DNA from: Membranipora membranacea
Taxonomy: Eukaryota; Bryozoa; Gymnolaemata; Cheilostomatida; Membraniporidae
Direction of reading: 5' to 3'
Assembly (NCBI GenBank): GCA_914767715.1
Contig: OU612069.1
Span: 27,959,387-28,023,386 of the forward strand
DNA length: 64,000 bases
The notes under the pieces are model-generated. The model worked only from the letters and a program-made list of their open reading frames with translations. It was not told where the DNA came from and made no database searches. A program made the translations under genes and the position numbers. This document shows positions 7,462 to 59,072 of the stretch, piece after piece (positions within the stretch are counted from its first letter, which is position 1; each line of letters begins with the position of its first letter).

Positions 7462-10400
7462 TCAATCAATAAAATTTACCATATTGTGTTCCTCACCTGA
7501 TTGTGGTTGAATTGAAGTGGGTGTTTGGTGAGGCGTCACAGGAAGCTCACCTGCCTCAATGATCCCTGGCATCAGGTAAAACTTAAAACCAAGAAATGTG
7601 CATCTTGTTTGAGGCATTGTTGCAACATAAGACGATTGAGCCCTTTTGTCAATTGCTATCAGTCCAACAACTTCTCTGATCTACAAGCAAATAAATAAAA
7701 CAATACAACGCAAATCACAAGAATATAAACATTGGCATTCTATGATGAGTTGAACAGTGACTCAATATCAAGGGAATACAGAATTCTGAGCCTGAAATTA
7801 TGATTACATTTTGAGAAATCATGATATTAATGTATTATAGCATAGTAATACAGAATGTTTTGTACTTTGCATTGTTTCCCTTAAAGTAAATAATGGTCTT
7901 GTGCGGCACCAGTTATGGATTTTTCAGCTTATCAATGCTTGTCAAGGATCATTCAATAAATGCACTGTCTATGTTTGAACCATCAGCATTTCATGGATTG
8001 GTATTGGGTGTATTTCTAGAACCAGTAAAGAAAAACTATGATTTAACTTTGATTTCATAGGGATCAAATGATATGGATAGGTTATTTTGTGACAATCAAA
8101 TAAACTTACTGTTGCAGCCAGTTTCTCCACATGATATATGTGAGCAAATTTGTAGAACACTGTGACTAACACCCTGATGAAAGGTGAGCCAGTTTTAGGG
8201 CTGAAGAATGTGACAAATGCTGAAATATAAAAGAATTTGTGTTTCATTGAATCATCATGCCACGTTTCTCGGATTATTCTTTGTAATTGTATTGATCACA
8301 ACTTACAATTAACCTAATTATATCTATGCTTGAGTTTAGCAATTTCTACATATTATTATATCATTGATACAATGACTGTTAATCCGGACATTAATATTCA
8401 TGCAAATTCAACAAAACCCTCTAAAAAGGAAAACCCATGCCACACATTTTAAGTTACTACCGATAACTAGCTTAAACAAGCTGACTTCAATAAATGTTTG
8501 ATTGCTTGCAGGTATGAGCACCACTCATCCTGCTAATTGAAACTGACTTTACACCTAACTAGGTCATGACATAGCGAAATAGTATCCATTTATTTCTTTT
8601 TCATTTGTGGAAGCAATTGAGGGATTTAAAATACCTTCAATGGCATTCAATCAGCATGATAATTTCATATAGAGTTAAGATTTATTTTCAGGCTTCATAA
8701 TTATATCTCTATCCGGTATCTCAACACTCGTCCGAGATATGTTAGTATTCGAAATTTGTGAACATCAAAGCAGAAAGTCAAATTCATTTCTATTTCTAAA
8801 AAGAATTAACTGTGAGATCAGATGGAAAAAGTTGGATGCTTAGCTGGGCATAAAATTTAGAGTTTGAAAGCTGTTAATATACTCTTTTATTCACGCTCAG
8901 AATATACTTATTTGTAGCAACTTTATGTAAGAGGTCTTTACTAGTCAGAATTTTGAGTGTTTTGATACTAATCAGTAAGATCATTGTAACAAGAGTGTAA
9001 TTTAGTGTCCTGTGCCCCGCAGCTGGTATATCCCTAATGTGTTTCCTTTTTACTTTGTCCATTGCAAACAGAACGCAACTTTGTGTCCAGTGTGCCATGT
9101 GTCTTGAGTCACAGGTGAAAGACTTTACTGGACCCAAATTATTACGAAAGCACCCCGTTCATTGCACCTCAATGTCAGAAGAAACAATAATTTCATTGAG
9201 TATCTACATATTCTGCGAGTTCTCTGTTACAGCACACCATAGTACTGAAAAGGCTCTGTGGCTCTTCGAGTGAAAAAATGGTTGTTGAATATTTATATGA
9301 TTGAAAAAGATCAAATTTTTCAACATGGAACTTAATCTGTGAAAAGGGTCAAATTTGTTGCCAACTCTCAGCTCTAGACCAGGTTGGATTGCTCTTGATG
9401 CAGAGGACAGTGTATCGATTAAAAATTCTAGAGTTTATAAATAAAAGTTTCATTAACATAATGAAAAGAGCCTCTCTAACTGGAAAAATTATAATGAGAT
9501 CGATATACATACTTGTTCCAATAGGAAAACAGTTATGTCACCAACTCCCTGTCAGCAGATTCATATTATTTCAAGTTGCCTTATTGTAACTTTATTGTTG
9601 GGTAATTTTCTGACTTTGCAAAGTGACCAATTTTTGTGGAAACACCAGCCATTATGTGAAGAGAACAAAGTAACCGAAGATTAACCTTGAACTAACTCAT
9701 TATTGAATAAACCATGATTGATTGAGAGGTTACCAATTTCGGTATCAAATAATAATTGTTATGTCTTTGGGTTTTAGCAACAACAGGGCTACCAAAAAAT
9801 GGGAAAATTTCTTGGAAAATAAAAGAAAATTGAATGGAAATAAGCAAACCTAGCCTTTTTGTCTGATAGAGAAGTATGTATCTGAGAGTCAAACACTAAA
9901 TCATTACTTGCTTAAAATTTACACTAAATTATTGATGACAGCAAAAACCACAGTGATTTTGTGCAGGCAAGATATACCTGAGATCAGAAGCTAATGCAGT
10001 GAATTCTATAGCCAAAATTTTATTAAAATAATCAAAGGTTTTAAACAAACTGTCCCTTATTCAGCACAAACTGAGATGAGGCCTCTATTATTCCAATTTT
10101 TTAATAATAATTCATAATTAATCTGTGACTATCTCTTTTTCAAAGAGAGATACAGCTATATAGTTTTTTTTCATCATAAAATTCAGATTTGTCCGCTTTG
10201 GAAGCTGATTAGCACGCTGTCGCAATGATTAACAATGAATTATCTCTGGTTTGGATAATCCGATCAAAAGCCTCCTGGATTGTACTATGAGATAAATCAC
10301 ATCAATCAATTTCCTGTAGGTTGTTTTAACCTAGCTGATTTAGACATGGTGTCAATTTCCAATCATCGCTGATTTTTTAAATTAATCCCAGTTAATAATA

Positions 10401-13049
10401 AAAACTTTATGGGGCTTTGAGCGATATTGAGAAAGTTTTGGCTTCTGTGTGTGTAATAAAAATGACAAAATCAGAATTCAAATACCGGTTGCCGAGATAT
10501 GCATATGTAAAGATCAATTTTGGAAAAGTGCACAAATCACTGTGACCCAACCCTGTCATGAACCGATGAATCAACATGAGCAGGTCAGGACACGGTTCAG
10601 TACTTGTTCTAGCCCTACATTTAGATTATTAAAAGTTAGAGATTCACACTCGTTTGTTTTATTCCAAATGAGAGGCACCAAATCCTGATGTTCTTGTTTC
10701 ATACTACAATTTTTAATGACCTGCTGAACTCATCTTCAAAATGATACCCATAAAGTAAATCAAACTTACAGTCAAATGAAGATTGCATGATTAGCAAGTC
10801 AGAGGTAGAGATTTCATGATATCTCAAGGGATCGCGAACTCCTTCAGACTCATGTGTGTCACCAATATTCATTGATGCATTTGGCTGTGGCTGTATTTCT
10901 GAGATGAGATGAGAAAATGCAGTTTAGCATGAACATTTTTTCCATAACCTTGAGTTATCAACACTGGTCACAAAACATTTTGGTGTCATTGTATTTTTGA
11001 AAGATTTATTATTCTTAGAGTTTATCTCATCAAGATCCAAAGACGGTGTCATTTTTACTAAAATTAAAATGTTCATAGAAAACAATTAAAATAAAACATT
11101 GATGACTTGTAATAAAATAAATAGGTAACATACCATTTGGTGGTTGCCCCTGTTTATCATCGCTAGCTTGCACTGGAGCCTCGTCGGCCATCGGCATCTC
11201 CCACTTTTCTGAAAAAGTAATTATGTGAAGCCTTCAAACAATATTGCAGGAGTTCATTGGGGCATAATTATGGCAATAACCTCATAAATCTACTCAAGCT
11301 TCCCCGGTGATGTATAGAACATACCTCCACCACAGGCATTGATTATGACAATTTTTGGCTTTGCTCTCATGGCTGGAAAGTTGTTAGGAGAGAGCAGATC
11401 GATAACATCTGGTATATCGATGAGTTTCCCATCACAACCAGCTACAGATCCTCTGTCTCCCGAGCTCAAGATAACTAAGATAAAAGATCCAAGATTTGCG
11501 TGATCGGGTAGCTGTGTCTCTGAGTGGATCTCTTCTATAATTTCCTATAATATAAAATAATTTATTCTCACATGATCGCAGTGATGTGTTCAATGCAAAT
11601 AGTAGATGTTTGAAAATCGACAAGTACTTGATTCCTTTGCATTTGTGCACATCATTCTGAAACACAGTTGCCCTAGCTGAATGTTTGAAAACAGATAAGG
11701 TATACCTTTAGAACAGAAAGTCAAAATCGAATCTATTAAACTTGTCCCAGGAGTGGGAGAGGCAAGCTTCCATGCCTACATGCTAAAATCTTGCTTAGAC
11801 TTTTCCACTCAGTCATCCTGGTTTAATTAAGCACAAATGTAATAAAATCACATCTGATCTGTTTTTCAGGCAGCTATTAGTCTGTAAACATGTTTTTATT
11901 TTTATGAATATACTCCACTTGGATAAATGACTTACACTAGAACTGAGACTTACAGCTACAAAACTTATAGGAAACAGATAACATACTCGTTGTTTTTTAT
12001 AAGGTCAAATCGGTGATTGAGTTCTGGATGATATGAATGCATGGCTAAATTGAGTCTCCGGTATGGTTTTAGGAGACTTTTACTGGGTATGGTCAAAATT
12101 AAAGTTTGCAGCTCCAAGGAACCAATGGCATGAACCCTTCCCCTCGAACCAATCTTCTTTATTTCCTCATATGACAAGCCTGCCATGCATCAAGTCCTGC
12201 AGCTAGTATGAGGGTAGCTTGTATTGATAAGCCTTTGAAAATTACTCTTTCCTCGGATTGTCTGTATTTTATGTTACCTTATATTAATGGATTCTGTCTT
12301 CTGGTGATGAGCATAGATGACAGAGTTGAGCCGCCATGAGACCGACAAGAAATGATCCATTACAAATTGGAGATCAAGGTGTAGGATTTCAGTTGCAAAG
12401 CTGTCTATGAGATAGTACAGATGTAAATGGTTTGAATCAGAGGGATTACACTTTGTTTCTCAATAGATCATTGTTCTTGCTCGTAAAACAGATTTTGTAT
12501 CGGATTTTGTTGGGTATTTGTTCACAAGTATAAGCTCTGTGATGAGTAGTGTGAAATTTATTACCATTTATTACACACTGGACAGAAAATGTGCAAAATA
12601 AAACATACCGAGGCAGTATAATTCTTGTGACCTCCTGATGTGACATAGCGAAACTGATCAAGCATTCGTTTCATGTTCACATAATCAGATTCAGAACCGT
12701 TGTGACTATTTGATAATATCAGTGCTCTTCCACGGGTTGCAGTGATTGGACAAATTTCCTGAAATTGAAATCATTTGATAAGAATTTGTAAGATATATCA
12801 TGCTCTACCATTCAGTAGTAACATCATCGAGAAAGATGAAGACCGCCTCATTTAATGTCAAATAAAAGGTACCTGGGTTTCAGAGGTGATAGATTTAGGG
12901 TCTTCCAGTGGCTCGGGCTGGAGCTTAATGAGTGCATCATCTGAATACACTATTTCTACAACGTTATTGAGTTGTACTGATCTATCTACATCTGTATTCT
13001 CCCCACGTGGTAGTTCTGTTTCGTTACTTGCTCTGCTAGCCATTGTCAA
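7462..13049 (-). CDS. Caspase-family protein, predicted pseudocaspase
   Basis: Seven exons join in phase with GT-AG introns: 13049-12873, 12758-12609, 11544-11325, 11208-11134, 10898-10770, 8219-8110 and 7680-7462. Total length is 1080 nt, or 359 residues plus TGA. Residues 1-59 form a short prodomain without a recognisable CARD or DED. The p20-like region (about 60-182) has RGRALILS, a VILSSG strand and the VIINACGG active-site loop. An acidic/Gln-rich linker covers about 183-235. The p10-like region follows, with SDLLIMQSSFD and FSPKTGSPFIRVL. The nucleophile Cys is present at about 180. The catalytic His of the usual SHG motif is Ser (about 137). The Arg normally in the RSG motif is His (about 78). 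QACRG reads NACGG, and the WRN Arg of p10 is Phe (about 256). The spacing 137 to 180 matches true caspases. The fold is confident. Loss of proteolysis is inferred, and a FLIP-like regulatory role is only a possibility. Start: the first ATG (MTM) follows a plausible 5'UTR acceptor. Confidence 0.88.
8220..10769. other. Large intron of the caspase-like gene
   Basis: This 2.55-kb AT-rich intron separates the two p10-coding exons. Small open frames on both strands lack domains. A short hairpin (TATCTCTTT with AAAGAGAGATA) lies near 10130-10152. No mobile element was recognised. Confidence 0.5.
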
Positions 13050-13913
13050 GTGTCCTGCACACCGCTAAAATGAGAATTCAAAGCATTTGATCAAAGCCGC
13101 AAAAGATGCCTGCTACATCATAGGAGATGTGAGGTATACACCCATATACTATACACAAATCAGCTTGAGTTGTCACCTTTGCCTGAAGATCGGTATAAAT
13201 TTGATCAGTATTCAACAGTAGCCATCAGGGGTTTAAATGCTTATGAATCCCTGAATGTTCCCTGAAATCTTCACACTTTCCCAATCACATCACATCAGCA
13301 GTCATAGTAGTTGCATTGTATATAGTTGTAAAAATACTACAACCATTGCTACCCGATACCTATCATTGATGCAGCTGTAACTTCAGAACACAACAGGAGA
13401 ATTTGTTTGACCTTATATGTGCCAGTCTTAAGGGATTCCATGGTGACTAATTGCCTGAATGTTTCTACCCTCCCTTATAAAGCAGGAAATCCTTTAATAT
13501 GTCAGTCATCTGGTGTTAGCAAAACGTCAGCAACACAGTGTCATCAATGATTATGTCATTCATGGCATGGCAGCAGTGAAGCGAGGAAAACCTGCACAGC
13601 CTTACAATTCATCACGGCCGCCTTCGCATCCAGCATTTATCCGTCATGCTCACATATTAGTCAGGAGTGGACACTTGCAAGATGGGCGTTTGGGTGCTAT
13701 GGTAGTGTCTACCGAATAGTTGCTGTTGAGTTATTCCAATACTATTCAAAAATGCAAAATTCTTCAAATTTCAATATGTAAGACTAAAAGCACATGCTTA
13801 CCCTGGAAATAGAATCGCTTATAATTTAGTTAAGCTAAAAAGTTTTTGGATACCTTAGTGTTAGCTCTAAATGTCAAGGTGAGAGTCCTCATAAAGTGCT
13901 CACTTACGGTGAG
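13050..13913. other. Upstream region of the caspase-like gene
   Basis: A plausible splice acceptor (GTGTGCAG on the minus strand, near 13061) suggests a 5'UTR intron begins here. No promoter element could be identified with confidence. Confidence 0.35.
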
Positions 13914-14497
13914 TTCATTTTATGTTATATCATTATATCATATCATTGTATCATAGTAGGTTAGAGGCTGTCTTGACAAGCTACTCACATTGACAGAGGG
14001 GAGGGGTTAGCTGAACTGGTGAAAAGTGTGCAGTCCCATCTAAAAATCAAGGAGAAAACACTTCAAAACCTTGGGTCTTCAATTTCCAGATACGAATTTT
14101 TACCGTTAACGAGTTATCTCCCAAACTTTGCTAGGGGACATCTAAAGTGAGACTCTTCAGGCTTGGCTTTTCGCCCTTTGCTCTACCTAACAAAATTTGT
14201 CAAGAAATATTAAGTAGATAGTGAATTACGTATGAGTGGTTATTGAAGCTTTAGTTAAAGGGCAAACTCTGCTTGGGTAATTTCTTTACTTTAAAAACTA
14301 TTTACAGTATTTCTGCCTCCTTGTACAAAGTTCAAACCATGTGAACTTTTGTGATCCAATCATACCTGTGTATTATTTTATAAATTAAATATAAAATATT
14401 TACATTTACTCATTCTTTTCTCATGGCTTCAGGGACCCCAAAGAAGATCCTATGATACTGGGACTACATGTCCATTAGAAATAGTCCTGTCAGTACT
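13914..14497. repeat. Dispersed repeat, copy 1 of 2 in window
   Basis: This 584-bp segment starts TTCATTTTATGTTATATCA and ends CCTGTCAGTACT. It is repeated in the same orientation at 32614-33116 with high identity. Copy 2 lacks about 80 bp from the middle of copy 1 (near 14050-14135). Flanks are unrelated outside these limits. No protein domain, terminal inverted repeat or target duplication was seen. It is probably a non-autonomous transposon of unknown class. Confidence 0.85.
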
Positions 14498-17400
14498 TTA
14501 CCTGCTAGGATAAAAATGACTTTTTATCCCTTCACCATTCCATTTTTAGTCAAATCGTTTCATTTGGAAATTGCCTTGCTTTTTCCTCAAATAATTCTTT
14601 TCTGGTGGTTGACTGCCTGATACCATTATGATCTGAGGGGAGGGTCATGTATATCATAAACTCCATTGCATGGTAATAAAACAAAGGGGTTATCTGATAT
14701 TTATCTCAGGTCAAACAAATTTTGTCCAATTTCTGCTCACCCTACCATCACAACAAGCATGGTCAGCATAATCCTTGATCGCCCGTTCTGTGCCCATAAG
14801 ACTCAGTCAATCACTGCCACGTTAGCTTGGACGGTTTTATGAGCAGAATATGTGAGAAACAATGTAAATGCAGAGGTTTCTGATATTTATTTGCACACTC
14901 TGTTGATGTTATTTAAATTAATTTAACTTACAGCCTATCCCTAGGAGATGACTAGGACTGGCCAGTGATAGTCCAGCGGTACAGAAAAAATTGAGATACG
15001 ACATACTCATATCCTGCCTACACAACAATTCTAGTGTGGCGAGTTATAATCCTTTTATCTTAGCATCAATTCAATAGATTCATTAATCGAGGGTGTGGTC
15101 AATGATTAGTGACGCCAGATACAGGTGTGTTTAGAGGTATGAGGTGAAGGTGGAGTGGAAGAAGATTGGGAGGTAGCGTAGGCACACCATGTCCTAGTGT
15201 CTAGTTCATTAATTGTGACCACACAATGTTCTGTCATCACCAATAATTATAATAATGATTTTAATGTTTTTTAAATTGATCTCAAAATTTATGGTCTAAT
15301 TTTTGATTGGTTTGGTGAGGGACTCTGCTAGAAAAGAATACCATACCAACATTATTTACGGATTTCCTGAACTATACATGGAACTAGCGATTGTAAAAAA
15401 AACACAGATATCAAAACAAAACACGTCTACATCTAAGAACATTGAACTACATGTAATGCTGACACTGAGGAAAAGGGATGGAGGCAGTGACAAGATTAAC
15501 TTTCTTGAGTGTACTGCAGTATACCTTGAGAAGCAACAGATGGGACCTGCCGAGGTTGCAGCTGAATATTATCGCTGTAGCAATGATTTTTACTAAAGAA
15601 TGAAACCAATTTAAACATTGAGAAAAATATCAATGATCGTTTCAGGAGGTGAACCCTACCTACAAACATTACTATAACGAATTGTGGATGTCCGTGTTGC
15701 ATTGACCAACTCAAGAATGTGACTGGTTTATAAAGCCTAGCCCAGAATCCTAATAAGCAGAAATAAGTTTGGCAAGAAAAGAGTCATTTGAGTCATACTA
15801 CAGTATTGAAGTATAGCATCAACCTACGTGTCACAAACCCCAGTTTCACGAACCCTATATAGCTTCATCATAAATACTCAACAGCCTTCTGTATAGTTTG
15901 CATATTCAAATTACCGCACAGATATGTTCCGCAGATACTGACAACAAGATACCAAGCTGAGCCAACTGGTCGTATTTAGTCACATCTAGGAATTATCCTT
16001 CAGAAATGAGTTATGATGATGGCGGTGCTTAGATCTGGCACATCGAAGAGATATCAGTGGAAGGTATTCATTGCATATTCGTAGTAGTATGGATGTGCTG
16101 ATGGTACATTATGGCTATATTTGTTTTGATTATTGTATGTGCTGGTAAACAAATCATTATTACCATCTTCTGTGGGAAGGTCTTTTACATATATTAACCA
16201 ACATTCTTTGGGTTAAATAAATATGGGGTTGATATCTACCCTGTATGTTTACATTATTTTGTTGATGGATATTTATACTTAACTATATGACTCTCTGTCA
16301 AAATTAATAACGTTCTGTTTTGCATTTAAGTTAAACAGTATTGAGTGCTATCGGCATGTCAGGGGGTTATTATGTCTGCTTTAAGTGATAATAGCCTATT
16401 AATAATAGAGTTGCCTCTCCTTTTGGAAGGGGAGGACAACACTCAAATAAGATGTGTCATAATCAAAGGTCTAAGTGTGTACAGGGAGTTTGGTGTGTAG
16501 AAATTAATATGTTATCGTTATCCTGAGAGATAAATCGATCTTCACATCGCCTCCCCCCAATAATTTGATCATATTGAAGAAAGGCTTGTCAGATCGAGCC
16601 TAAATCATGGCCTTTATCAATATTGACCCATCAAATCTCCAAGAGGATTGGGGTCATCATCAGTGTGACATATGAATACAACGATACAACAGGCAAATCA
16701 GGTGGAGTTTGTGACAACAAGCAATGCTATGACAATCCTATGCAGGTGTGGCGTACTTAACTGGTACACAACCAACCTGGATTGGTTTGTGAGAGGCAAT
16801 CAAACTGTATCATGATCTTCTTATTAATCTGCGAGATTGTTTTGCAGTTCTTGGGAAAATAAAACTCTCTCATTAGTTCCATTTAAGCCCTATGAGTGAA
16901 CTCAACCTCAGATAGGTCTGGGGGTCGGCACACTCCTTGTGACTCATGGCTAAACATACTACCAAATTCTATTCAATTCAACCGAGTGTGGTTGCAGGGC
17001 AATCCACTCTCTTTATAATCAGATTTCAGGGTCGCATCAGAATTATCAGATCTTCTTTCACTTACTAATATAATAAACACAGCTTACTTGTACTTGAAGA
17101 ACTGCTGATTTAAAGGTGACATCAGAATTAAGCCAAACAATGCTTACCTGCGTTAAGAGTTCAAAAGAGTAGTATAGTCAATGCTTGCCAAGGCACAAGT
17201 ACACAATAAGCAGCCCAGATAGTCAATGAAACATTTATTTGCGATTTGCGATACTTTAATATTATAATGAACACAGCTTATTTATACTTGAAGAACTGCT
17301 GATTGGATGATGCGGTGCTGTTATTGAATTAGGTTATTGATCTTAGCATCAGCGATTGCATTACAATAGCAAGCTAACATTCATTGAAATTCAATACAAA

Positions 17401-18679
17401 GGTAATGGTTTGCATTGATAGCAACTCTATTCTTCAGGCTCTTTTATTCATGTATATTGATTTTCAGGGATGAAAAAATGAAATGTTTACATTTGTGGCC
17501 GTCCTGCATGGATTTGATTGTCAAGTAGAATTAGTCCATATATATGTAAGGTGTAAAGGCAACAGCTGTAAGTTCAGTTTATTGCCAAATAGCATAGCGA
17601 GCCAAAATAAACGAAAATGACAGGAGAAAAGTTATAGTACCCAAAAACATTTTCCTTGGATTGCCGGGAGGCAGTTGGGTGGGCAGCAAGAGTGGGCTCA
17701 GAGTACATGAGCTGCTCGGATAAGGGCGGCAGCACAAGCTCAAGATGAATATCCTGACTTGTTCAGTGTCAGCAGCAGATAGTCCATTGATGGAAGTCTG
17801 CTGGATTTAATTGCTCTTAATGTCGCAATGAACTTCAGTAACAAACTCAGAGCAGGGGAGGTTCATACTCAGATCATGATTTTAATACTGAACAGCTCTT
17901 ATTTTCTACTCATGGAAAAATAAGTAATAATAAGCCTACAAACTTTGCCAGCACACCAACCAATCAGTTTCTCCAGCATACCAACTGCCTCAAACCCCAG
18001 ATATAATGTTACAGAAACATGTCGGAGAAAATTATTATACACCTGTCTTTATAAAACAAACAGGATGAAAGAGGTTACAGACTCGGTCTTAGCCTCTTTA
18101 CCCTGACATATTTTAACCTGTCCGAAATAAAAAAACACATCACCAGCTGAAAAATTCACGTGTAAGACCTCTAACTAAGACAGCTCAATAATCACACATA
18201 TCTAATCACAAGTCAACTCTGTTGGACAGCTTTATGATATCTGTTGCACACCCCACGAGCAGTGAAAAGATCCCCCTCTGCCTCTTTGATAAAAAGAGTA
18301 GCCAGACTCCTGGCCGACAAGGGTATAGGGCGCCGCGAGAGTACCATGGGTCCAAATACCTCGTACTCTAGACAGGACAACCATCTCCGCAATGAAGACT
18401 AAGACTTAGTTTCCAAGTGTTGGAATCAGCAAACTTTCTCTTTCAAATTCATCAAACATATAAAAACAAACAAAACTCAACAAAAAATCATTAGCCCCAA
18501 CCATAAAAAATCCCTCGTTGATGACAAGCAAGTGGGTTGTCAGTTATTGTAGTGCGCAGATACCGCACCAATGGTAGACACATAGCTGACTAGTTTTCTC
18601 TTGTATTCTCAGTTTGTGCTTAGGTCAACAGGCTACACCTCCAACTTCAACTCCGATGTGAGGCAAAGAACTGAAATAT
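14498..18679. other. Non-coding stretch with an ancient local duplication
   Basis: No gene is supported here. A frame at 15303-15596 has no recognised domain. One roughly 45-bp sequence (ACACAGCTTACTTGTACTTG) occurs at 17067-17110 and again, diverged, at 17258-17304, which indicates an old local duplication. Confidence 0.45.
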
Positions 18680-18689
18680 ATATATATTT

Positions 18690-18741
<52 letters not shown>
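18680..18741. repeat. (TA)n microsatellite
   Basis: A nearly pure TA dinucleotide run of about 60 bp. Confidence 0.95.
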
Positions 18742-18745
<4 letters not shown>

Positions 18746-19284
18746 AGGGTGGGATTAGAACAATTAAAGAACAAAAAAATGATTATGATGCCAATAAAAG
18801 TATTGAGAAAAACCCACTTACTGACTGAGCTATCTCAGTGATGGCACAATAACTACTTCCTGGTAACTGTCAGCATTCTTATATTCAGATATCGGCGGCG
18901 CACAGCTTTAGGGACCACATGTAGTAGGGCTGCAAACACTTTTTCCAATTGTACTTCTACTCTTTGCCTTTTTTCAACAAACCACGGTTATCTACTTTTT
19001 TTAAGGTTCAACTGATGATATGCGCAATTTTATCTTTTATCACTTTGTTTTTGTCCATTGGTATACCCCAGGGCCCTTAATAATAGGGTCTCAACGCAAA
19101 AATTTCCACAAGAGTACGCTCGGCGTTCCTCTCGCGCCCTCCCTGAGTGCAATGGACCTTCCATCTATTCTATACCCTCAACCAAATCTACTCTTTGCCG
19201 CAAAAGTTGGCAGCCCTGACCTGTAGTACAAACCAACAACTAACCCCTTGTATAGAAGTTACAGCGTGATATATATATAATAAT

Positions 19285-19503
19285 ATACCTATAGACTGGT
19301 TGACACAATATTATAATCTACATACAGACTGGTTGACACAATATTATAATATACCTATATACTGGTTGACACAATATTATAATATACCTATATACTGGTT
19401 GACACAATATTATAATATACCTATATACTGGTTGACACAATATTATAATATACCTATATACTGGTTGACACAATATTATAATATACCTATATACTGGTTG
19501 ACA
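19285..19503. repeat. 33-bp minisatellite, about 6.5 copies
   Basis: The unit contains CTGGTTGACACAATATTATA and then ATACCTATATA. Because 33 is divisible by 3 and no stop arises, both strands stay open through the array. The resulting repeat peptides are artefacts. Confidence 0.95.
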
Positions 19504-19599
19504 GCTTTCATACACAGATTCTCGTAATGAACTTGACCAGGTGATACTCCGTCTTGTCCTGATTTCTAAAACAGAATAAACAATGTGTAATGTATCGTA

Positions 19600-19642
19600 G
19601 GCCGGGGGGGGCAAAGGTCTGTAGGGGGGGGGGGGGGGGGGC
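19600..19642. repeat. Poly-G tracts
   Basis: Two G runs lie close together (GGGGGGG near 19604 and a run of about 18 G near 19624). They could form G-quadruplex structure, and base-call length here is unreliable. Confidence 0.85.
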
Positions 19643-19768
19643 TGAAACTATGTAAGCATATGTGCTGGTATCAATACATATGTATGATAAGCTATAGTCA
19701 CATTCCTATATTGACCAGGATACCAGAGCTCAAGGAGAGCAAGAGAGCACTTTAATAAAGCTAAAGTT

Positions 19769-20004
19769 TGTAATGTATCGTAATGTATTGTAACATTATT
19801 GTAACGTATTGTAACTTACTGTAATGAAATGTAACATACTGTTACGTATTGTACTGTATTATAATGTATTATTACATATTTCAAAGTATCGTTATGTACT
19901 GTAGCGTACTGTAATTTACTGTAACATACTGTAAGGTGTTGTAACTTACTGTTATGTACTGCAATTTACTGTAACATATTGTAACACACTGTAACATATT
20001 GTAA
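19769..20004. repeat. Degenerate about 10-bp tandem repeat (TGTAACNTAC)
   Basis: More than twenty imperfect copies of a decamer such as TGTAACATAC or TGTAATGTAT follow one another. Substitutions are frequent and the 10-bp spacing is largely kept. One helical turn per unit is noted without a proposed function. Confidence 0.85.
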
Positions 20005-20542
20005 GCTTATTTGCTAATGATACACTAGTATTACGTATTAGTATTAATTATCACATTCCTATATTGATGAGGATGCTGGGGCTAAAGGAGAGGGAAAAGA
20101 ACATTTAATAAAGCTAACTTACAATCAAAATTGACAGTCCCTTTACATAAAGGTGAGAAACTATGAAATAATACCCATACATATACTCAGTATTACATAT
20201 CATGGTGATGGAATTCTACAGAGAGAATGCATTGAGTATTTTGAGACCATTGTGGCGATGAAAAGGCCTTCAAGCTAACAGAGGTAAAATAATACACTCC
20301 TTCCCAAACCTGTTGGAGCTCCAATGCCTCCCTCCTCTTGGACCCAAATGTTTGAATCTTTGCAGTCAGCTAACAGATTTGAGCCTCCCATCAGTCTGAT
20401 GATGTAGTCTATGTGCTCAATTGATATCAAAACATTGCCAATCAACGTCATCTTACAAATTTGGAGACATGATATACATTTTTAATGCAACAACCATCAT
20501 CCGAAGAATTTCTTCCTGATGTGCAAAAAAATGATAGCCTAC

Positions 20543-20948
20543 CATGTTTGTATTGAGATAGTTCATCTTTTCCTTGAGCTCCGGTGAGTACATATTAGGG
20601 TAGGGTAACCCAACCATGATAAAACATCTACTGAGATCGTCTGAGAAATTAATACCCTCACTCATCTTACCTCCAACCACAGAGAAAAAAACTCCACCTG
20701 ATGACTACAAAATCGACAAGAAGGTTAACCAAACAACAGTTGGGCTGTTAGGCAAGAGGTTTAAAGGTCTATTATACATCCATGCGGCCTCACTGTTTGA
20801 TGTGAGAGAAAGCCTCTAATTTGAACTAACCCAATAAGAATAATTGCAATGTTAAGACTTTCCTCAGAACTCAGAAACACAACATCTCTATCAACGGGAG
20901 ATAACTAACCTTAATGGAACGACGATAAGCTTCAAGCACCGTATCAAC
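20543..20948 (-). CDS. DDX11/ChlR1-like helicase, two exons (fragment)
   Basis: Two minus-strand exons join in phase: 20948-20910 ([13 protein letters not shown]) and 20704-20543 ([17 protein letters not shown], then [16 protein letters not shown] and [13 protein letters not shown]). The second exon is the very conserved segment of the XPD/FANCJ/DDX11 family of iron-sulfur superfamily-2 helicases, just before motif VI. The match is closest to DDX11/ChlR1, a DNA helicase acting in sister-chromatid cohesion. Splice sites look good: acceptors CCAG and GTAG, donors GTTAGT and GTAGGC. I could not find the next exon, which should carry the QSIGRAIRH motif VI, nor the upstream exon within several kilobases. 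This is either part of a gene with large introns or a relic. The frame has no stops in the two exons. Confidence 0.72.
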
Positions 20949-21026
20949 CTGGTTTGTTTTCTTTGGTTAACGAAATATCTGCAAACAGCGAGCAAGGAGT
21001 TAAAGCTGAGTAAAGAGAGTAAAGCT

Positions 21027-21049
21027 GTATATATATATATATATATATG
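21027..21049. repeat. (TA)n microsatellite
   Basis: A short pure TA run downstream of the LINE/GATA block. Confidence 0.85.
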
Positions 21050-21204
21050 ATATATTGAGAGTTTCACAAGTTCTTTTTTTGCAAATAGAGTTAGCCTAGC
21101 CAAATTACGTGAGGGCCAAAGTTGCCCTGTGAAAATGCTAGTCTCAGCCATCAACTCCGATACCCTTATCCAGCACTGCACATTAAAAAAAACAGTATCT
21201 TACC

Positions 21205-21386
<182 letters not shown>

Positions 21387-21728
21387 GGACTTTATTTCAC
21401 CGCTCAAGAAAGTACATAATACAATCATAATCAGAGCATGAGTTACATTAAAAAATATTCGAACTGCATTAGTCGTTCTTTATAATGTCACACATAGCAA
21501 AATAAATCCATTTTATACACCGAATTTGTAAAATATAGTATTCATAAGGCTCTGAGTTCGGTGCTTTTTGATCAGGGTGTTATGAGTTCTAGTAGAGTGC
21601 CTGTTTGTGTCTTGCCTGGATGGAATCAGGTGGGATAACCGGTGTGTGAACCTGAGATAAGCCAAAGAACAAGAGAAACATAATACCCTTCCATGTTGCA
21701 TTGGTTGCATATTCCTCAACAGTAACAA
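21387..21728 (-). mobile_element. Non-LTR retrotransposon 3' end (5'-truncated LINE)
   Basis: A minus-strand frame reads SLAYLRFTHRLSHLIPSRQD, NRHSTRTHNT and onward, the style of the C-terminal tail of jockey/CR1-type LINE ORF2 proteins. It is followed by about 140 bp of 3' untranslated sequence with an AATAAA-like signal (GTGAAATAAAGTCCATATC). Then comes the long TATC array. A microsatellite tail in place of poly(A) is typical of several LINE clades. Only the last part of the element is present, with no RT domain. Assignment is by resemblance and the tail. Confidence 0.6.
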
Positions 21729-22220
21729 ACAAGCCCTTCTTCAAACTTTTTTTAAACATCTTATTTGGAGTTATCCCCTCGACGCCTTAGTGTTATATAA
21801 TTTTGAGTTGTCCTGCCATGTCACACACTTTCTTTGCTGAAGGGGGCAGTAAAGCTCATCTTACACAACCAAAACAAAAAATAATTTGTGACAGGCATGG
21901 CTGCAAGCAGCAGGAACACCAAGAGACTGCTGAGTTTACTGAAGCAATGGCCAGTAGACCAGGGCAGAAAAAGCAGAGATTTTGGAAAGCTGTTACATAG
22001 CAGAGTGGGGATCGCTCTCAGAACTGCAACTGTTGATACACAGGTATATTACTGCAGAACTCCTCCAACAAATTTGACTAGCCTGAACATAGACTGCCGC
22101 AGTTCCTGATTTTGGGCTTGGTGTGGGTGGGGGGTGGGGGGTGGGAAGGATGGAAGCTCTATTTATTTTGCAATTCGAGGTTTTTGAAATAAGCACAGCT
22201 TTAACTGCCAAAGTTAAATT

Positions 22221-25200
22221 CGGTGTAGTATTGTAAACTGTCCCCCGCGCGAAAACAACCCCGGGACACTTTACAATATTGTAAACTGTCCCGGGGACAC
22301 TTTACAATAAAAACAGGCCTATTGTAAACTGTCTCCCCCTATTGTAAACCGTCCCCCCCTATTGTAAACTGTCCCCCCTATTTGTGACTGTCCATATCGA
22401 GAGCCCAGCTGTTTATCACCATTCTAAATGGGTCAGATCATCTAAGTGGAGCATACCATGATGTTCTGGCTGCCACTATGATGGCCAAAGTTGTACCATG
22501 GGGATGGTGGTGGTATCTCATTGAATGAGTGTATAAAGCCTCTTTTTCATATGGTACTTTGGGGATCTATTTTTCGCAAACACTAGTTATTTGAAGCTCC
22601 TATGATTTAGAGATCTCTGGTTTGCGAAGAAAGGTGCACTAAGCCGACAGTGGATAGATGTGTAGTTGCCACATCACAGAACACACATACTTTCATTGCA
22701 GGTTCATGAGCCGCGCGATAACAACCACACCATTCATTCATCATAAAATCTACCTCCGTCAAGCATTTGCCTAGGAGTGATGGCAGTCAGTCACAAGTGT
22801 GAGCGGGAGAAATAATTACTTTTGAGCTTTTCATATTGTGAGGATGGGTATTGCACTGTAAAATATTGCTTAAGCCGCGCGAAAACAACCACCCCCCAAA
22901 GTGTCTTATAAAGATAATCTGTCAAAAAGTCTCAATCATAATTGACCATGATTTGGCAGCCATAATGTGATTGTCATAAGGTGACTGTGTACCAAATTTC
23001 AGATTAGTAGGTCAGAACTTAATGACACAACGGATGATATGTCGTTCTTTGCAAGTTCATGAGCCGCGCGAAAACAACCACCCCATTCATTCATCTTGAA
23101 TTCTACCTCAATCAAGCATTTGCCTGTGAGTGATAAAAGTCAGTCACAAGTGAGACCTGGAGAAATAACGAGTTTTGAGTTTTTCATATTGTGCCGCCTG
23201 GTATTGGACTGTAAAATATTGCTTAAGCCGCGCGAAAATAACCACCCCCCAAGCTGTCTTATAAAGATTATCTGTCAAAAAGTCTCAAACGAAATGAACC
23301 ATGATTTTCTAGCAATAATGTGATTGTCATGAAGTGACTGTGTACCTAATTTTGGATTAAAAGGTTAGAAATTAATGACACAACGGATGATATGTCGTTC
23401 TTTGCAAGTTCATGAGCCGCGCGAAAACAACCACCCCATTCAGTCATCTTGAAATCTACCTCAATCAAGCATTTGCCAGTAAGTGATGAAAGTCAGTCAC
23501 ATGTGAGACCTGGAGAAATAACGACTTTTGAGTTTTTCATATTGTGCCGCCTGGTATTGGCTCATGAACTTGCAAAGAATGACATATAATCCGTTGTGAC
23601 ATTAAGTTCTGACCTACTAATCTGAAATTTGGTACACAGGCACCTTATGACAATCACATTATGGCTGCCAAATCATGGTTCATTATGATTGAGACTTTTT
23701 GACAGATAATCGTTATTTCTCCAGGTCTCACTTGTGACTGACTTTCATCACTCACAGGCATATGCTTGATTGAGGTAGATTTCAAGATGACTGAATGGGG
23801 TGGTTGTTTTCGCGCGGCTCATGAACTTGAAGAGAACGACATATCATCCGTTGTGTCATTAATTTCTAACCTTTTAATCCAAAATTAGGTACACAGTCAC
23901 TTCATGACAATCACATCATTGCTAGAAAATCATGGTTCATTTCGTTTGAGACTTTTTGACAGATAATCTTTATAAGACAGCTTGGGGGGTGGTTGTTTTC
24001 GCGCGGCTTAAGCAATGTTTTACAGTCCAATACCAGGCGGCACAATATGAAAAACTCAAAAGTCGTTATTTCTCCAGGTCTCACTTGTGACTGACTTTCA
24101 TCACTCACAGGCAAATGCTTGATTGAGGTAGATTTCAAGATGAATGAATGGGGTGGTTGTTTTCGCGCGGCTCATGAACTTGCAAAGAACGACATATCAT
24201 CCGTTGTGTCATTAAGTTCTGACCTACTAATCTGAAATTTGGTACACAGGCACCTTATGACAATCACATTATGGCTGCCAAATCATGGTTCATTATGATT
24301 GAGACTTTTTGACAGATAATCTTTATAAGACACTTTTGGGGGTGGTTGTTTTCGCGCGGCTTAAGCAATATTTTACAGTCCAATACCAGGTGGCGCAATA
24401 TGAAAAACTCAAAAGTCGTTATTTCTCCAGGTCTCACATGTGACTGACTTTCATCACTCACAGGCAAATGCTTGATTGAGGTAGATTTCAAGATGACTGA
24501 ATGGGGTGGTTGTTTTCGCGCGGCTCATTAACTTGCAAGGAACGACATATCATCCGCTGTGTCATTAAGTTCTGACCTACTAATCTGAAATTTGGTACAC
24601 AGTCACCTTATGACAATCGCATTATGGATGCAAAATCACGGTTCATTATGTTTGAGACTTTTAACAGATATCTTTATAAGACAGCTTGGGGGGTGGTTGT
24701 TTTCGCGCGGCTTAAGCAATATTTTACAGTGCAATACCCATCCTCACAATATGAAAAGCTCAAAAGTAATTATTTCTCCAGGTCTCACTTGTGACTGACT
24801 GCCATCACTCCTAGGCAAATGCTTGACGGAGGTAGATTTTATGATGAATGAATGGGGTGGTTGTTTTCGCGCGGCTCATGAACCTGCAATGAAAGTATGT
24901 GTGTTCTGTGATGTGGCAACTACACATCCATCCACTGTCGGCTTAGTGCACCTTTCTTCGCAAACCAGACATCTCTAAATCATAGGAGCTTCAAAAAACT
25001 AGTGTTTGCGAAAAATAGATCTCCAAGTACCATATGAAAAAGAGGCTTTATACACTCATTCAATGAGATACCACCACCATCCCCATGGTACAACTTTGGC
25101 CATCATAGTGGCAGCCAGAACATCATGGTATGCTCCACTTAGATGATCTGACCCATTTAGAATGGTGATAAACAGCTTGGCTCTCGATATGGACAGTCAC

Positions 25201-25382
25201 AAATAAGGGGGACAGTTTACAATAGGGGGGGACGGTTTACAATAGCGGGGGACAGTTTACAATAGGGGGGGACAGTTTACAATAGGCCTGTTTTTATTGT
25301 AAAGTGTCCCCGGGACAGTTTACAATATTGTAAAGTGTCCAGGGGTTGTTTTCGCGCGGGGGACAGTTTACAATACTACACC
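22221..25382. mobile_element. 3.16-kb foldback element built of 353-bp tandem units
   Basis: The termini are inverted copies: the left end CGGTGTAGTATTGTAAACTG recurs in reverse complement at the right end (25382 inward). Inverted similarity runs through most of the element. The subterminal zone has short repeats of TATTGTAAACTGTCCCC (left about 22231-22395, right about 25190-25375). Further in are 353-bp tandem units. Anchor GTTCATGAGCCGCGCG lies at 22702, 23055 and 23408 in the left arm. The reverse complement lies at about 23816, 24169, 24522 and 24873 in the right arm. Each unit has CCGCGCGAAAACAACC twice, spaced alternately about 163 and 190 bp. The orientation switch is near 23560. Arms are diverged, so this is not a simple assembly mirror. 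No transposase or clear target duplication was found. A frame of about 75 codons recurs in each unit but is not thought to be coding. Confidence 0.9.
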
Positions 25383-25639
25383 GGAAACACTTTCTGATTG
25401 GTTGAATCATATTGTTTTGATGTTGCTTGGAAATCAGACTACCGCCACATTTAAATGTTTTGAAGATGACTACATTGGAGCTGACAGACATAGTGTGCTG
25501 GTGAGGGTATTATATTTTGTTTAGTATGGTACATGTCTTTCCATTATCTGGTTCTACTTATGCACCAAGTGTTTAAGATATCAATCAAAACACTGGCTTG
25601 ACATTGGAGTTTGTGAAGCCATATTCATTCTTACTTACT

Positions 25640-25860
25640 AGTAATTATCTATTCAATCTCTCGTCTCCACTCTCTCTACTACTCTCTCCCTCTACTCTCT
25701 CCCTCTACTCTTTCCCTCTACTCTCTTCCTCTACTCTCACTACTACTCTCTCTACTTCTCAATCTCTCCTCTCCTTACTCACTCTCCTCTCCTCACTTAC
25801 TCTCTCCCTCTACTCATCATTACTTTTTCTATTATTACTCTGTCCTTCATCCATCCAGTC
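25640..25860. repeat. Pyrimidine-rich (CTCTAC/CTCTCC)n low-complexity tract
   Basis: Imperfect repeats of CTCTCCCTCTA form a strand-biased C/T tract. It could act as a long polypyrimidine region upstream of the acceptor candidates at about 25920-25943. Confidence 0.85.
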
Positions 25861-26012
25861 GAGCTGATGTAAAATGTTGTGTAAAAGCCTACTATTCTCT
25901 CTGTCTGTTTCCTACTCTTCTCTAGTGGTTTCCTTATTTAGAGGGGCTTTTAGATTTAAGGGTAATTTTCCTGTCAACCATTATAACTCCACTGAGTGTT
26001 ATTGACCTGTCA

Positions 26013-29000
26013 ATGAAAATACCGGGTGCATGTGACTTTCCTCTTACAAGATTACAGCAACTACTATACTTCTGCAAACCTTGTGATATGCAAAAGTCTG
26101 GTGCCTGTCCTCAACTCACATCAAAATTCAGTAAGGTGACTACCTGTCATAGCTGTAAGCAGGTGGACAGCTATAGGAAACGAAAGCATGAGAAATCCAT
26201 ACTCACGGCAGAAAAAGGTATGTTGATGTGATTTAACCTGTTGGTGCTCATGACGTAATCTGATTATCTCACAGCATGTAGGGTCTAACTAGTATAACTG
26301 AAGCCTGTATTAAGATATCAATGCCTCGAGGCTGTTAATGAAAGTTAAATTTCCGATAATATGTGTACAATTAGACTCCCTTGGGTCACAGATTGACCGG
26401 CTTACAAATCCCTATTCTCCTTAATTTACGTTATGTTCTGTTGTTGTAGAAAACCTTTCACCAACCAATATTAAGCGGAAAATCACTGAGGTAACGGGAA
26501 GTGAGAACTTTGGGGAGCATGTGAGGACACAACTAGAAATGGGGTCAAAAAAGAAGAGGATCTTCAACCCGATGTTAGTAAATTCTGATGCTTTTTGTAT
26601 TCATAATCTAAAAGTTTTATTCAGACCGGTCATTTTTGTATTTTGTTGTATTCTTGTAACTCACAGGCATAAGGATATACTATTGATGCCCCGCGCTACT
26701 GGATACATTTGTGCGAGAAAATGCATGGATCATTTCACCGGCGAGTGTACTAGATTCCCTTGAAGCATGCCGGTTATATTGGTATATAGGCTTATATGAT
26801 TCATGGTTAGTTGGTTGACAACGTATCAATGCCTTGCCACTACTAGATTCTATCATTTTGGCATCGCAAACAAACTAAAATTGGATGTATATATGTTGTA
26901 TCTCTGCAGTCCCAACCCAAACTTATATGTTTAAATTTTTTGTCAGGACTATAACAACAAGCCTACGACACTATAATCAGTGCCCCAAGAGCTATAAAGA
27001 GGCGAGATCCGCTCAGTACCAAGGAGTTTTACCTTCTCCAAGGCAGCTGAGGTAAGTTATTATTTTTAACAATGTTGTGACTGAAGACAAAGGAGAAGAC
27101 AAACAATGCTTGACGATGTCAATTGTTTGTAAAATATATGATATTGTTTGATCAATTCTACCAACAGTTATGACACAAGCAACATACATTCTTCAATGAT
27201 CCTTTTGTTTCTTGTCTCCTGGATATCAGCTTGATTTTCCTCCGTCTTTCCTAGGACTTACAAGGCATCTTGTGATCAAAGCAGTGGCATAAACAGAGAA
27301 GCCATCAAATGGATGAAAGAAGTATGGTTAGAGAGAAAGGCAACTTCGTATGAATTCTTGGGAGGGCTTCCCATCGACGAGATGACAATACAGGTAAAGT
27401 TTTTAGATGGCATCTCAATTGCTGGCTTTTCCTAGCTGACTGTTATGATACACTCGTGTTGTACAATTATGGCATCTATATGTTAATGATTTCTGATCAT
27501 AAATGACCATAGGAATAGCCACAAGGATAACTGATAGAGCTGCAAAATTATTTCATTCTTCTATAAATATAATGCAAATATGCACTCTATGTTCACTTAG
27601 GAAGATGTCATGTTTGACAATAACGGCATGGTTCACGGTTATGCAGAGCTATCAGATGTGAGGAGCCTTGCAGCCTTGGCGTTCCCTCCTCCTGAGGTGA
27701 AAGAACCGGATATGGCAAATAAAGTATGCCAACTGATATTTGCTGGCCTCAATGGAGCTACGTTTCCAGTCGGGTACTTTCCAGTTCGGACCTGGAACTC
27801 CATTGATATTCTATCGACTTTGACTGATGCAATTGAAGAATTGCATCAACATGGATTTGTGGTAAGTTACTCCAATTGCAATGTGACAGCATCTACTTCT
27901 TTAGAGCATCGTCAAATTAAACAAACTGTCATCACCTTCAACTACGTGGGAATTTTAAAAGCTTGACAAAATAAGAATATTATAGTTTGAACAAAGGGTG
28001 AGCGATTTGGGAACCAGACCTCTGGTTGATCTTGCTAATCTCAGTTAGGAATGATCAGATAGAAGTTTAAGTAATTTTTAATTGAATAACCACCCAGGCT
28101 CTTATTAACTGACTCTCATTCAAATTAAGAAGGCTTCTGAAATTGTATGAGCCGGAGTAACTGATCACTGCTGTTTCACATTTCTAAACCCAGACATCAT
28201 AATATATCCTGTTTAGTGGGTTCCATATTGAGCATAGTTGTGATCTGCTGTATATGCAATATACTGTATATTTGGTTTTCTTTTGGATGATGCATACAGA
28301 TTCGCTATGTTTCTATGGATGGAGCAGCACCTAATAGAGCAGCTATAAAGAGGGCCATCTGTACTTGGAGATGTGGCCGTGTACTTGGTAAAGATTATAC
28401 GCTGAGGCAGCCCGGAGGGGAAGAGTGCCTGACATTTATAATGGATATAAAAGTTAGTTATACAGCAAAACCTTTCTCACAAGGATTTCACGAACTTTAC
28501 TGAGATCATAATAATAATGATAATAATATTTGGATCACAACAGAAATTGTTAAACATTTACAAATACTTTACCTGCGGGTGATTTGGACAATTATGTACA
28601 TATGCTTACGAGAAACGAGAACAATGCTGCTGATAAGGGCACCAGATGATAAAAACAGTCATGTCATGATTCTGCAGCAATGGCGTATAAGTCTATCAAA
28701 TGTGATAATTGTAATAAAAAGAATAAAACTATGAATCCTAACTATGTTTTAGCACTGTTTAAAGAAGCTGAGAAACAGCTTGCTGAGAAGTGCTGTGCAC
28801 AAGGATGTGAACAAGACAGTTAAAAAAAAAGGCCGAAAGAAAGTCTTTCGCAGACTCAAAACAGCAGCGGGTAAGTCAACAAGTTGTGAATCGGCTAAGT
28901 ATGGTGAATGCTTGTTTATAGACGTTTCTGAGGTTAGGGATAGTTTGTAAGTAAGCTAGCTAACTGTAACGACACGAGTATTATGAAATGTATATTTAGT

Positions 29001-30005
29001 TTCTATGTTACAGGTGAAATACTATGGGTCCATTGGGTAGGTGCCTATGAGTTCTCTGTGAATAGGGACTGGAGGATTCACCCAAAGTTGACTCGGCGCC
29101 ATGTCTATGCTGCTGAGCTAGACAAGATGAGAAATCATCTTGCTGAAGAGGTTTTGGATAAAAGCATGCTCTACCTGATGAAGGTAATTGAGCATCACAG
29201 TTCGGTTTTCAGTCATATAATCTGAACAACTCAAGCTACATCATGCTCACTGTCTGGTTCATGGTCTGCGCCAAGCTAAAATATAATGTAAAGTGTGTTA
29301 GCTGAATGTGGCATTACAGATAAAAACCGATGGGATCCCTGAAATATCTAACACATGCTGTATATTGTAGCAATATCAGACAGTGACAGAGCAAGATCTG
29401 GCAGCCACTATAGAGCTCCTGGAGCACACCTCAATACTGGTGGAGCTATTTCAGAGAGGTAAGATGATTGATAAATTCATCTGTGAACATTACACAGCTT
29501 TGTAGCATTCAAGAAACATAGAAGTTTGAAGTTGCATCCTTTTATTTTTAACATTAATAACTAAGTTTTATCTGCTCAATATTTTAATAATGGGATTGTT
29601 TTATAACTAGGTGGACAGAAGACACTCCAGCCACAGAACATCTCAGATCTAAGGCGTATTGCTGCATTCTTTGAACTGTGGAGTTTGAGGGACTTGCCAG
29701 AGGAAAAACCGACCACTGAGTGCCTATGGGATATGCAGTGTGCTCTCAGAGGAGTTGCAGAGCTTGCTGAAACATCACAATTTATGATAAGGCCTGATGT
29801 TATCAATTCAGACTTGGTAGAGCTACATTTCTCCCAAGTGAGGGAGCTATACCATAACAGAACTCCCAACATCCTCCAATATAGGAATGTACAGAATTCC
29901 ATCATTCTCTCCCAACCCGTCGCTCGGCTGAACAAAAACACGAATACGGCTACCATGTATCCAAAACCATTTATGATGTTGTGCAAAAACCAAAATTCTA
30001 AATAG
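26013..30005 (+). CDS. P-element/THAP9-like transposase, intact 10-exon gene
   Basis: Exons are 26013-26217, 26450-26573, 26947-27051, 27255-27393, 27601-27861, 28300-28452, 28753-28870, 29014-29183, 29371-29458 and 29611-30005. All join in phase, giving 585 codons plus TAG without internal stops. The N-terminus (residues 1-68) has CKPC, a third Cys and CHSC, a possible zinc site. No THAP domain was found. The RPL-like block PSPRQLRTYKAS leads to the RNase-H fold. Candidate catalytic acids are Asp186 (PIDEMTIQ), Asp285 (SMDGAAPNR) and Glu525 (DLVELHFSQVR), the same motif contexts as P element and THAP9. HPKLTRRHVY is another family hallmark. The gene may be a live transposase or a domesticated one. 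No terminal repeats were seen. The frame is open upstream of the chosen ATG, back to plausible acceptors near 25920-25943, so exon 1 may be internal. A convergent PHD gene ends about 50 bp away. Confidence 0.85.
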
Positions 30006-30056
30006 CAGTACCAATGGAGTGAGGCATAACTGTGACTTTGAAAAGAATAATTGTAA

Positions 30057-58340: not shown

Positions 58341-59072
58341 GGCCTACTGTATGTAGTTTTATAGTTAGTAGCCCTACTGTATGTAGTTTTATAGTTAGTA
58401 GCCCTACTGTATGTAGTTTTATAGTTAGTAGCCCTACTGTATGTAGTTTTATAGTTAGTAGCCCTACTGTATGTAGTTTTATAGTTGGTAGCCCTACTGT
58501 ATGTAGTTTTATAGTTAGTAGCCCTACTGTATGTAGTTTTATAGTTAGTAGCCCTACTGTATGTAGTTTTATAGTTGGTAGCCCTACTGTATGTAGTTTT
58601 ATAGTTAGTAGCCCTACTGTATGTAGTTTTATAGTTAGTAGCCCTACTGTATGTAGTTTTATAGTTAGTAGCCCTACTGTATGTAGTTTTATAGTTAGTA
58701 GCCCTACTGTATGTAGTTTTATAGTTAGTAGCCCTACTGTATGTAGTTTTATAGTTAGTAGCCCTACTGTATGTAGTTTTATAGTTGGTAGCCCTACTGT
58801 ATGTAGTTTTATAGTTAGTAGCCCTACTGTATGTAGTTTTATAGTTAGTAGCCCTACTGTATGTAGTTTTATAGTTGGTAGCCCTACTGTATGTAGTTTT
58901 ATAGTTAGTAGCCCTACTGTATGTAGTTTTATAGTTAGTAGCCCTACTGTATGTAGTTTTATAGTTAGTAGCCCTACTGTATGTAGTTTTATAGTTAGTA
59001 GCCCTACTGTATGTAGTTTTATAGTTAGTAGCCCTACTGTATGTAGTTTTATAGTGAGTAGCCCTACTGTAT
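58341..59072. repeat. 30-bp satellite array, about 24 copies
   Basis: The unit GCCCTACTGTATGTAGTTTT plus ATAGTTAGTA is repeated head to tail without indels. Four units carry a G for A (ATAGTTGGTA) at 58487, 58577, 58787 and 58877. The last unit has GTGAGTA. There are no spacers, so this is not a CRISPR array. Confidence 0.97.

What the first reader, a model, noticed from the sequence alone, without database searches (positions are those of the whole stretch)
7462..13049. Complete caspase-fold gene with the catalytic His and S1-pocket Arg residues replaced
The seven-exon model gives a normal-length caspase (359 aa) whose nucleophile Cys is kept in NACGG. The catalytic His position is Ser (LSSG). 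The Arg before the SG motif is His, QACRG has lost its Arg, and the p10 WRN Arg is Phe. His and all three Asp-recognition arginines being lost together, in an otherwise intact and well-spliced gene, points to a maintained non-proteolytic caspase homologue (pseudocaspase) rather than random decay. It would parallel FLIP-type regulators but with a short prodomain lacking DEDs.
Basis: partly seen in the sequence, partly recalled or inferred. Interest (0 to 1): 0.78.

Follow-up and report, generated by a model that had tools for sequence, protein, structure and literature searches.

The report
Animal caspase that lost its chemistry
This is an intact animal gene for a caspase (a cell-death protease) in which the catalytic histidine and all three substrate-gripping residues are gone while the scaffold is kept, so it is probably a non-cutting regulator, a kind already known from other animals.

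Summary
A seven-exon minus-strand gene (coding 13043-7462, six GT-AG introns) encodes 357 aa, not 359, with a complete caspase domain (Pfam, 1.3e-26). It has lost the catalytic His (Ser135, TCG), the S1 Gln (Asn176), the p10 S1 Arg (Phe254) and, by deletion, the L1 S1 Arg; the Cys stays. Ten relatives keep these wherever they have letters: His 10/10, Gln 10/10, both Arg 9/9. The real third contact, the Gln, is lost too, so the conclusion survives. Strands remain 85-100% identical to the closest relative and branch length resembles that of an active-type relative, which favours a maintained gene over decay. Most likely role, inferred: a FLIP/CASPS18-like partner that pairs with an active caspase through p10. 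Expression, dN/dS, host and active paralogue are untested; the own-genome search did not complete. Pseudocaspases are known, so this is a new member of a known kind.

The parts
12873..13043 (-). exon 1: ATG and short N-terminal segment (57 aa)
   Evidence: no other Pfam domain in the protein; residues 23-60 are 12/38 identical to P0001
12609..12758 (-). exon 2: beta1, L1 loop (S1 Arg absent), alpha1
   Evidence: beta1 10/11 identical to P0001
12699..12704 (-). His76-Asn77 codons: place of the 4-residue gap that removes the S1 Arg of loop L1
11325..11544 (-). exon 3: rest of p20 with LSSG (His lost) and NACGG (Cys kept)
11461..11463 (-). Ser135 (TCG) at the catalytic His position
   Evidence: His in 10 of 10 relatives
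11338..11340 (-). Asn176 (AAT) at the S1 Gln position
   Evidence: Gln in 10 of 10 relatives
11332..11334 (-). Cys178 (TGT), the nucleophile position, kept
11134..11208 (-). exon 4: intersubunit linker
   Evidence: whole linker (residues 187-234) 9/48 identical to P0001
10770..10898 (-). exon 5: linker end and beta5 (STSDLLIMQSSFD)
   Evidence: beta5 14/16 identical to P0001
8110..8219 (-). exon 6: p10 substrate loop (FFSPKTGS) and helix alpha4
8203..8205 (-). Phe254 (TTC) at the p10 S1 Arg position
   Evidence: Arg in 9 of 9 relatives with a letter there
7462..7680 (-). exon 7: alpha5, beta6 strand (VATMPQTRCTFLGFKFYLMP), C-terminal tail, stop 7464-7462
   Evidence: beta6 17/20 identical to P0001
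7344..7349 (-). poly(A)-signal-like hexamer about 110 nt past the stop
   Evidence: pattern match to AATAAA or ATTAAA only

Best explanation
The gene encodes a pseudocaspase: a p20-p10 caspase domain that cannot cut after Asp because the catalytic His and the three P1-Asp-binding side chains (L1 Arg, Gln, p10 Arg) are gone. Shown by sequence: the losses, the intact gene, and the kept scaffold including the p10 beta6 strand, which forms the dimer interface in caspases (recalled, not tested). Inferred: it acts by pairing through p10 with an active caspase, probably of its own clade, and thereby raises or lowers that partner's activation, as c-FLIP(L) does with caspase-8 and as proposed for mosquito CASPS18 with CASPS19. 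No DED/CARD was found, so recruitment would be by caspase-domain contact alone.
Against: No RNA, no dN/dS, no binding data. The partner is hypothetical: no second caspase was found in the window and the own-genome search did not complete. The Cys is retained, which a pure scaffold would not need. The three clade relatives have longer C-terminal tails, and a motif search found no such exon here. The window branch is 1.7-1.9 times that of P0001 and with all columns slightly longer than that of P0005 (0.365 against 0.349). The L1 loop apart from the gap is 5/7 identical, so the contrast between strands and loops is modest; the regions were drawn by eye. The Fisher tests are small, use columns that I chose as catalytic, and treat columns as independent.
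Confidence: 0.6

Rival explanations
1. Non-proteolytic but not a caspase partner: the pseudocaspase works as a stand-alone scaffold, peptide binder or decoy for upstream adaptors.
For: c-FLIP(L) also has functions outside caspase control (PMC7586951, passages). The linker (9/48), the loop at 291-303 (2/13) and the p10 substrate loop (5/10) have diverged from P0001.
Against: The beta6 strand is 17/20 identical to P0001. No adaptor domain was found in the three minus-strand frames of 13044-22000.
Confidence: 0.17
2. A pseudogene that lost function recently and has not yet gathered stops.
For: No transcript evidence. The window branch is longer than that of P0001. In a simple simulation a neutral divergence of 5% leaves 16% of copies without a stop.
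Against: Three active-site codons are at least 3, 2 and 2 nt from the ancestral residue, plus an in-frame 4-codon deletion. At a neutral divergence of 0.2 per base 0.2% of 2,000 simulated copies lack a stop, at 0.5 none (substitutions only). Six intact introns, conserved strands, and the other invariant columns changed only by swaps with BLOSUM62 of 0 or more.
Confidence: 0.12
3. A caspase-fold enzyme with changed chemistry or specificity, using the kept Cys178 with another base.
For: Cys178 and Gly136 remain. Clade relatives already lack the Trp next to the p10 Arg (VSPRS, ASLRS, VSIRS), so specificity in the clade may be unusual.
Against: No residue is evident that would replace the His; Ser is not a general base (general knowledge). 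All three P1 contacts are gone together.
Confidence: 0.07
4. Gene-model or sequencing artefact.
For: No RNA. A strong unused donor (CAG|GTGAGG) lies inside exon 7 at 7496.
Against: The losses lie inside exons and need several base changes each; relatives agree with the junctions; in tblastn of ten relatives every match below E 0.01 lies in this gene's exons, so no alternative p20 or p10 exon was seen.
Confidence: 0.03

Closest known systems
c-FLIP(L) (CFLAR), vertebrate pseudocaspase
   Same: Caspase-like domain with catalytic residues replaced; paralogue of active caspases.
   Different: FLIP(L) has two DEDs and replaces both His (Arg315) and Cys (Tyr360) (PMC7586951, passages); here no DED was found and the Cys is kept. 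Orthology was not tested.
Aedes aegypti CASPS18
   Same: Invertebrate caspase relative described as lacking its own catalytic domain and as a decoy that enhances CASPS19 (PMC4840389, passages).
   Different: A homologue of Drosophila Decay (same passages); its sequence was not compared here.
Bivalve caspases with His and/or Cys replaced (Cg2-like C, Cg3A, Mg2-like)
   Same: His replaced (Arg in Cg2-like C, Tyr in Cg3A) or both lost (Mg2-like) in recognisable caspases; Cg3A expression changes in development (PMC7836458, passages).
   Different: Other caspase groups; loss of the S1 residues is not mentioned in the passages that I saw.
Coral caspase-X, first domain
   Same: Predicted inactive caspase domain thought to interact with an active one (PMC4715348, passages).
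   Different: Two caspase domains in one protein, His and Cys both lost in the first; here one domain with Cys kept.
C. elegans CSP-2/CSP-3
   Same: Caspase paralogues with altered (CSP-2 VCCRG) or missing (CSP-3) active site, reported to inhibit apoptosis; the CSP-3 effect was not reproduced in the paper seen (PMC3591282, passages).
   Different: CSP-3 lacks the active site; here the whole caspase domain is present. Sequences were not compared.
P0001/P0002/P0005, unnamed JGI metagenome proteins
   Same: Same clade (100% bootstrap); P0001 47% identical over 92%.
   Different: P0001 and P0002 keep all catalytic and S1 residues; P0005, a fragment without L1, keeps His, Cys, Gln and p10 Arg. All three have longer C-terminal tails.

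Membership tests
Caspase fold (Pfam Peptidase_C14; MEROPS C14A by recall) | Whole p20+p10 domain | tested here: met
   Pfam profile 1-233/233 at 1.3e-26; the 60 PDB matches shown are caspases
Active caspase | Catalytic His | tested here: not met
   Ser135, TCG; His in 10/10 relatives
Active caspase | Catalytic Cys | tested here: met
   Cys178
Active caspase | S1 side chains Arg87/Gln184/Arg233 (caspase-7 numbering, PMC4357240) | tested here: not met
   deleted / Asn176 / Phe254 (definition)
Pseudocaspase | Loss of a catalytic dyad residue in an intact gene | tested here: met
Pseudocaspase | Purifying selection on the gene after the loss | tested here: inconclusive
   indirect only: simulation, strand conservation, branch lengths
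Pseudocaspase | No peptidase activity in vitro | not testable with these tools
   needs protein
c-FLIP | Tandem DEDs before the caspase domain | tested here: not met
   none in the 357-aa model nor in three minus-strand frames of 13044-22000 and 22000-31900; a domain split by introns could be missed
c-FLIP | Heterodimer with an initiator caspase | not testable with these tools
   no partner sequence in hand

The most novel reading that the evidence does not exclude
In an animal lineage not represented among the named sequences found, a distinct caspase clade (QACAG, no Trp beside the p10 Arg, long C-terminal tail) has budded off a DED-less pseudocaspase that lost the His and the entire P1-Asp pocket while keeping the Cys and the dimer face, and that serves as a dedicated dimerisation switch for its active sisters: an independent invention of FLIP-like control by caspase-domain contact alone.
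Probability: 0.3. Interest if true: 0.55.

Novelty: new member of a known kind. Interest (0 to 1): 0.4.

Why it matters
If confirmed, it adds an independent case of a caspase turned into a non-cutting protein, with a clean pattern (chemistry and substrate pocket erased, scaffold kept) and active-type relatives at about 47% identity, which makes the partner model directly testable. It would support the view that caspase control by inactive relatives evolved repeatedly.

Tried and rejected
Looked for alternative exons that would restore the His or Arg, and for a second caspase, with the window protein and ten relatives by tblastn on the whole window: every match below E 0.01 lies in this gene's exons; P0010 has none. 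Looked for a death-fold domain upstream on the same strand: none. Looked downstream for a domain and, by a motif pattern only, for an exon like the relatives' C-terminal tail: none. Scans of viral contigs, prokaryote genome contigs and phage records found no relative, as expected for an animal gene. NCBIfam gave nothing. The window has no Rfam match at the gathering score and no ARAGORN tRNA. Paper searches for QACAG with 'caspase' and NACGG with 'caspase' found 0 papers, and 'pseudocaspase' with 'catalytically inactive' and 'invertebrate' found 0; these are weak tests of novelty. The host could not be named. Foldseek's rmsd values in the 50 rows shown were high (6.1-10.7), so I rely on the VIA-align rows.

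Full report
What is there. The minus strand from 13043 to 7462 holds a seven-exon gene. I rebuilt it exon by exon: all six introns are GT-AG, phases match, and the product is 357 aa. The protein has one Pfam domain, Peptidase_C14 (caspase), at 1.3e-26 over the whole profile. Its best solved matches are caspase-9 and caspase-2; the 60 shown of 167 are all caspases. The splice junctions agree with relatives that align straight across them.

Relatives. A first protein search gave one relative, P0001 (47% identity over 92%, on a 1,731-base JGI contig). Two profile searches added P0002 and two amphioxus records, P0003 and P0004, then P0005 (JGI), P0006-P0008 (no name given), P0009 (an oyster) and P0010 (a snail) (in which only the 7,993 candidates sharing most words were scored). 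That is ten relatives; P0010 lacks p10 and P0005 lacks the N-terminal part. P0003/P0004 are near-identical and P0006-P0009 close, so the rows are not independent. In a tree of the caspase core (10 rows, P0010 left out) the window, P0001, P0002 and P0005 form one clade with 100% bootstrap; the sister relation to P0001 has 85%. With the active-site columns removed the two other placements inside the clade are not rejected (AU 0.16 and 0.17), while the one placement outside that I tested, with the mollusc-type caspases, is.

The losses. Caspase-7 grips the P1 Asp with three side chains, Arg87, Gln184 and Arg233, and cuts with a His/Cys dyad (PMC4357240, passages; Arg64 and Arg207 in caspase-3, PMC4626109, passages). 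In the window the His is Ser135, the Gln is Asn176, the p10 Arg is Phe254 and the L1 Arg falls in a four-residue gap; Cys178 stays. The relatives keep His in 10 of 10, Gln in 10 of 10, L1 Arg in 9 of 9 and p10 Arg in 9 of 9 rows that have a letter. It is not: human caspase-9 has QACGG in the alignment, and the window's clade relatives have QACAG.

Chance, decay or selection. Of 31 columns invariant in the relatives, the window changes 10: 4 of 5 catalytic or S1 columns, and 6 of 26 others, the six being M/I, I/L, I/V, D/E, S/T and A/V. The tests are small (p 0.027; p 0.002 for negative-scoring or deleted), use columns that I chose, and treat columns as independent. The three substituted codons are at least 3, 2 and 2 bases from the old residue. 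In a simple neutral simulation (2,000 copies each, substitutions only) a divergence of 0.2 per base leaves 0.2% of copies without a stop, and 0.05 leaves 16%. So a young pseudogene is possible in general but does not readily explain several multi-base changes at just these sites. The beta strands are 85-100% identical to P0001, helical parts 61-64%, the L1 to L3 and p10 substrate loops 50-71%, the loop at 291-303 15% and the linker 19% (regions drawn by eye; deleted residues are not counted). With active-site columns removed the window branch (0.335) is like that of P0005 (0.363), though longer than P0001 (0.199); with all columns it is 0.365 against 0.349 and 0.188. This is indirect; a true dN/dS needs orthologue DNA that I did not have.

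Surroundings. No second caspase and no alternative p20 or p10 exon was found in the window. No death-fold domain turned up in the three minus-strand frames of 13044-22000 or 22000-31900. The neighbours found are ordinary: a helicase C-terminal exon, a weak UQCC2-like match, transposon pieces and tandem repeats. The own-genome search for other caspases did not complete in 16 attempts, so the active paralogue is untested.

How it probably works. A domain with a kept scaffold and kept beta6 strand but no chemistry is best read as a partner, not a cutter. c-FLIP(L) does this with caspase-8: the mixed dimer is favoured and has restricted activity (PMC7586951, passages). CASPS18 in Aedes is described as a decoy that enhances CASPS19 (PMC4840389, passages), and the inactive domain of coral caspase-X may modulate the active one (PMC4715348, passages). 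Here the steps shown are the losses, the fold family and the intact gene; pairing, partner and direction of effect are inferred.

Novelty. Inactive or probably inactive caspases are reported in vertebrates (c-FLIP, caspase-12; PMC11121540, passages), bivalves (PMC7836458, passages), corals, mosquitoes and nematodes (PMC3591282, passages). This is a new member of a known kind. The combination of a kept Cys with total loss of the P1 pocket, in a clade with active-type relatives, is a good test case but not a new principle.

Noticed in passing
7496 (minus strand): A strong splice donor (CAG|GTGAGG, 8 of 9 consensus positions) inside exon 7 that the model reads through; a second 3' end with another tail is possible.
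   Followed up: partly
P0001, P0002, P0005: The clade's active-type members read QACAG and lack the Trp beside the p10 Arg (VSPRS, ASLRS, VSIRS), and have long C-terminal tails; their specificity may be unusual.
   Followed up: no
20543-20704 (minus strand): Exon with a Helicase_C_2 domain (8e-15), DDX11/ChlR1-like by recall of its motif (read).
   Followed up: no
21921-22013 (plus strand): Weak match to UQCC2/CBP6, below the Pfam cut-off.
   Followed up: no
22692-24893: Two tandem arrays of a 353-base unit (89% and 91% matches) whose consensus units look like reverse complements of each other.
   Followed up: no
58343-59072: A 30-base unit repeated 24 times at 98%, open in three reading frames.
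   Followed up: no
166-774, 40003-40461, 46635-47477: Transposon remnants: DDE_1 transposase, RNase H of a retroelement, reverse transcriptase.
   Followed up: no
about 50359-50805 (plus strand): ORF with a sushi domain (4.8e-05).
   Followed up: no
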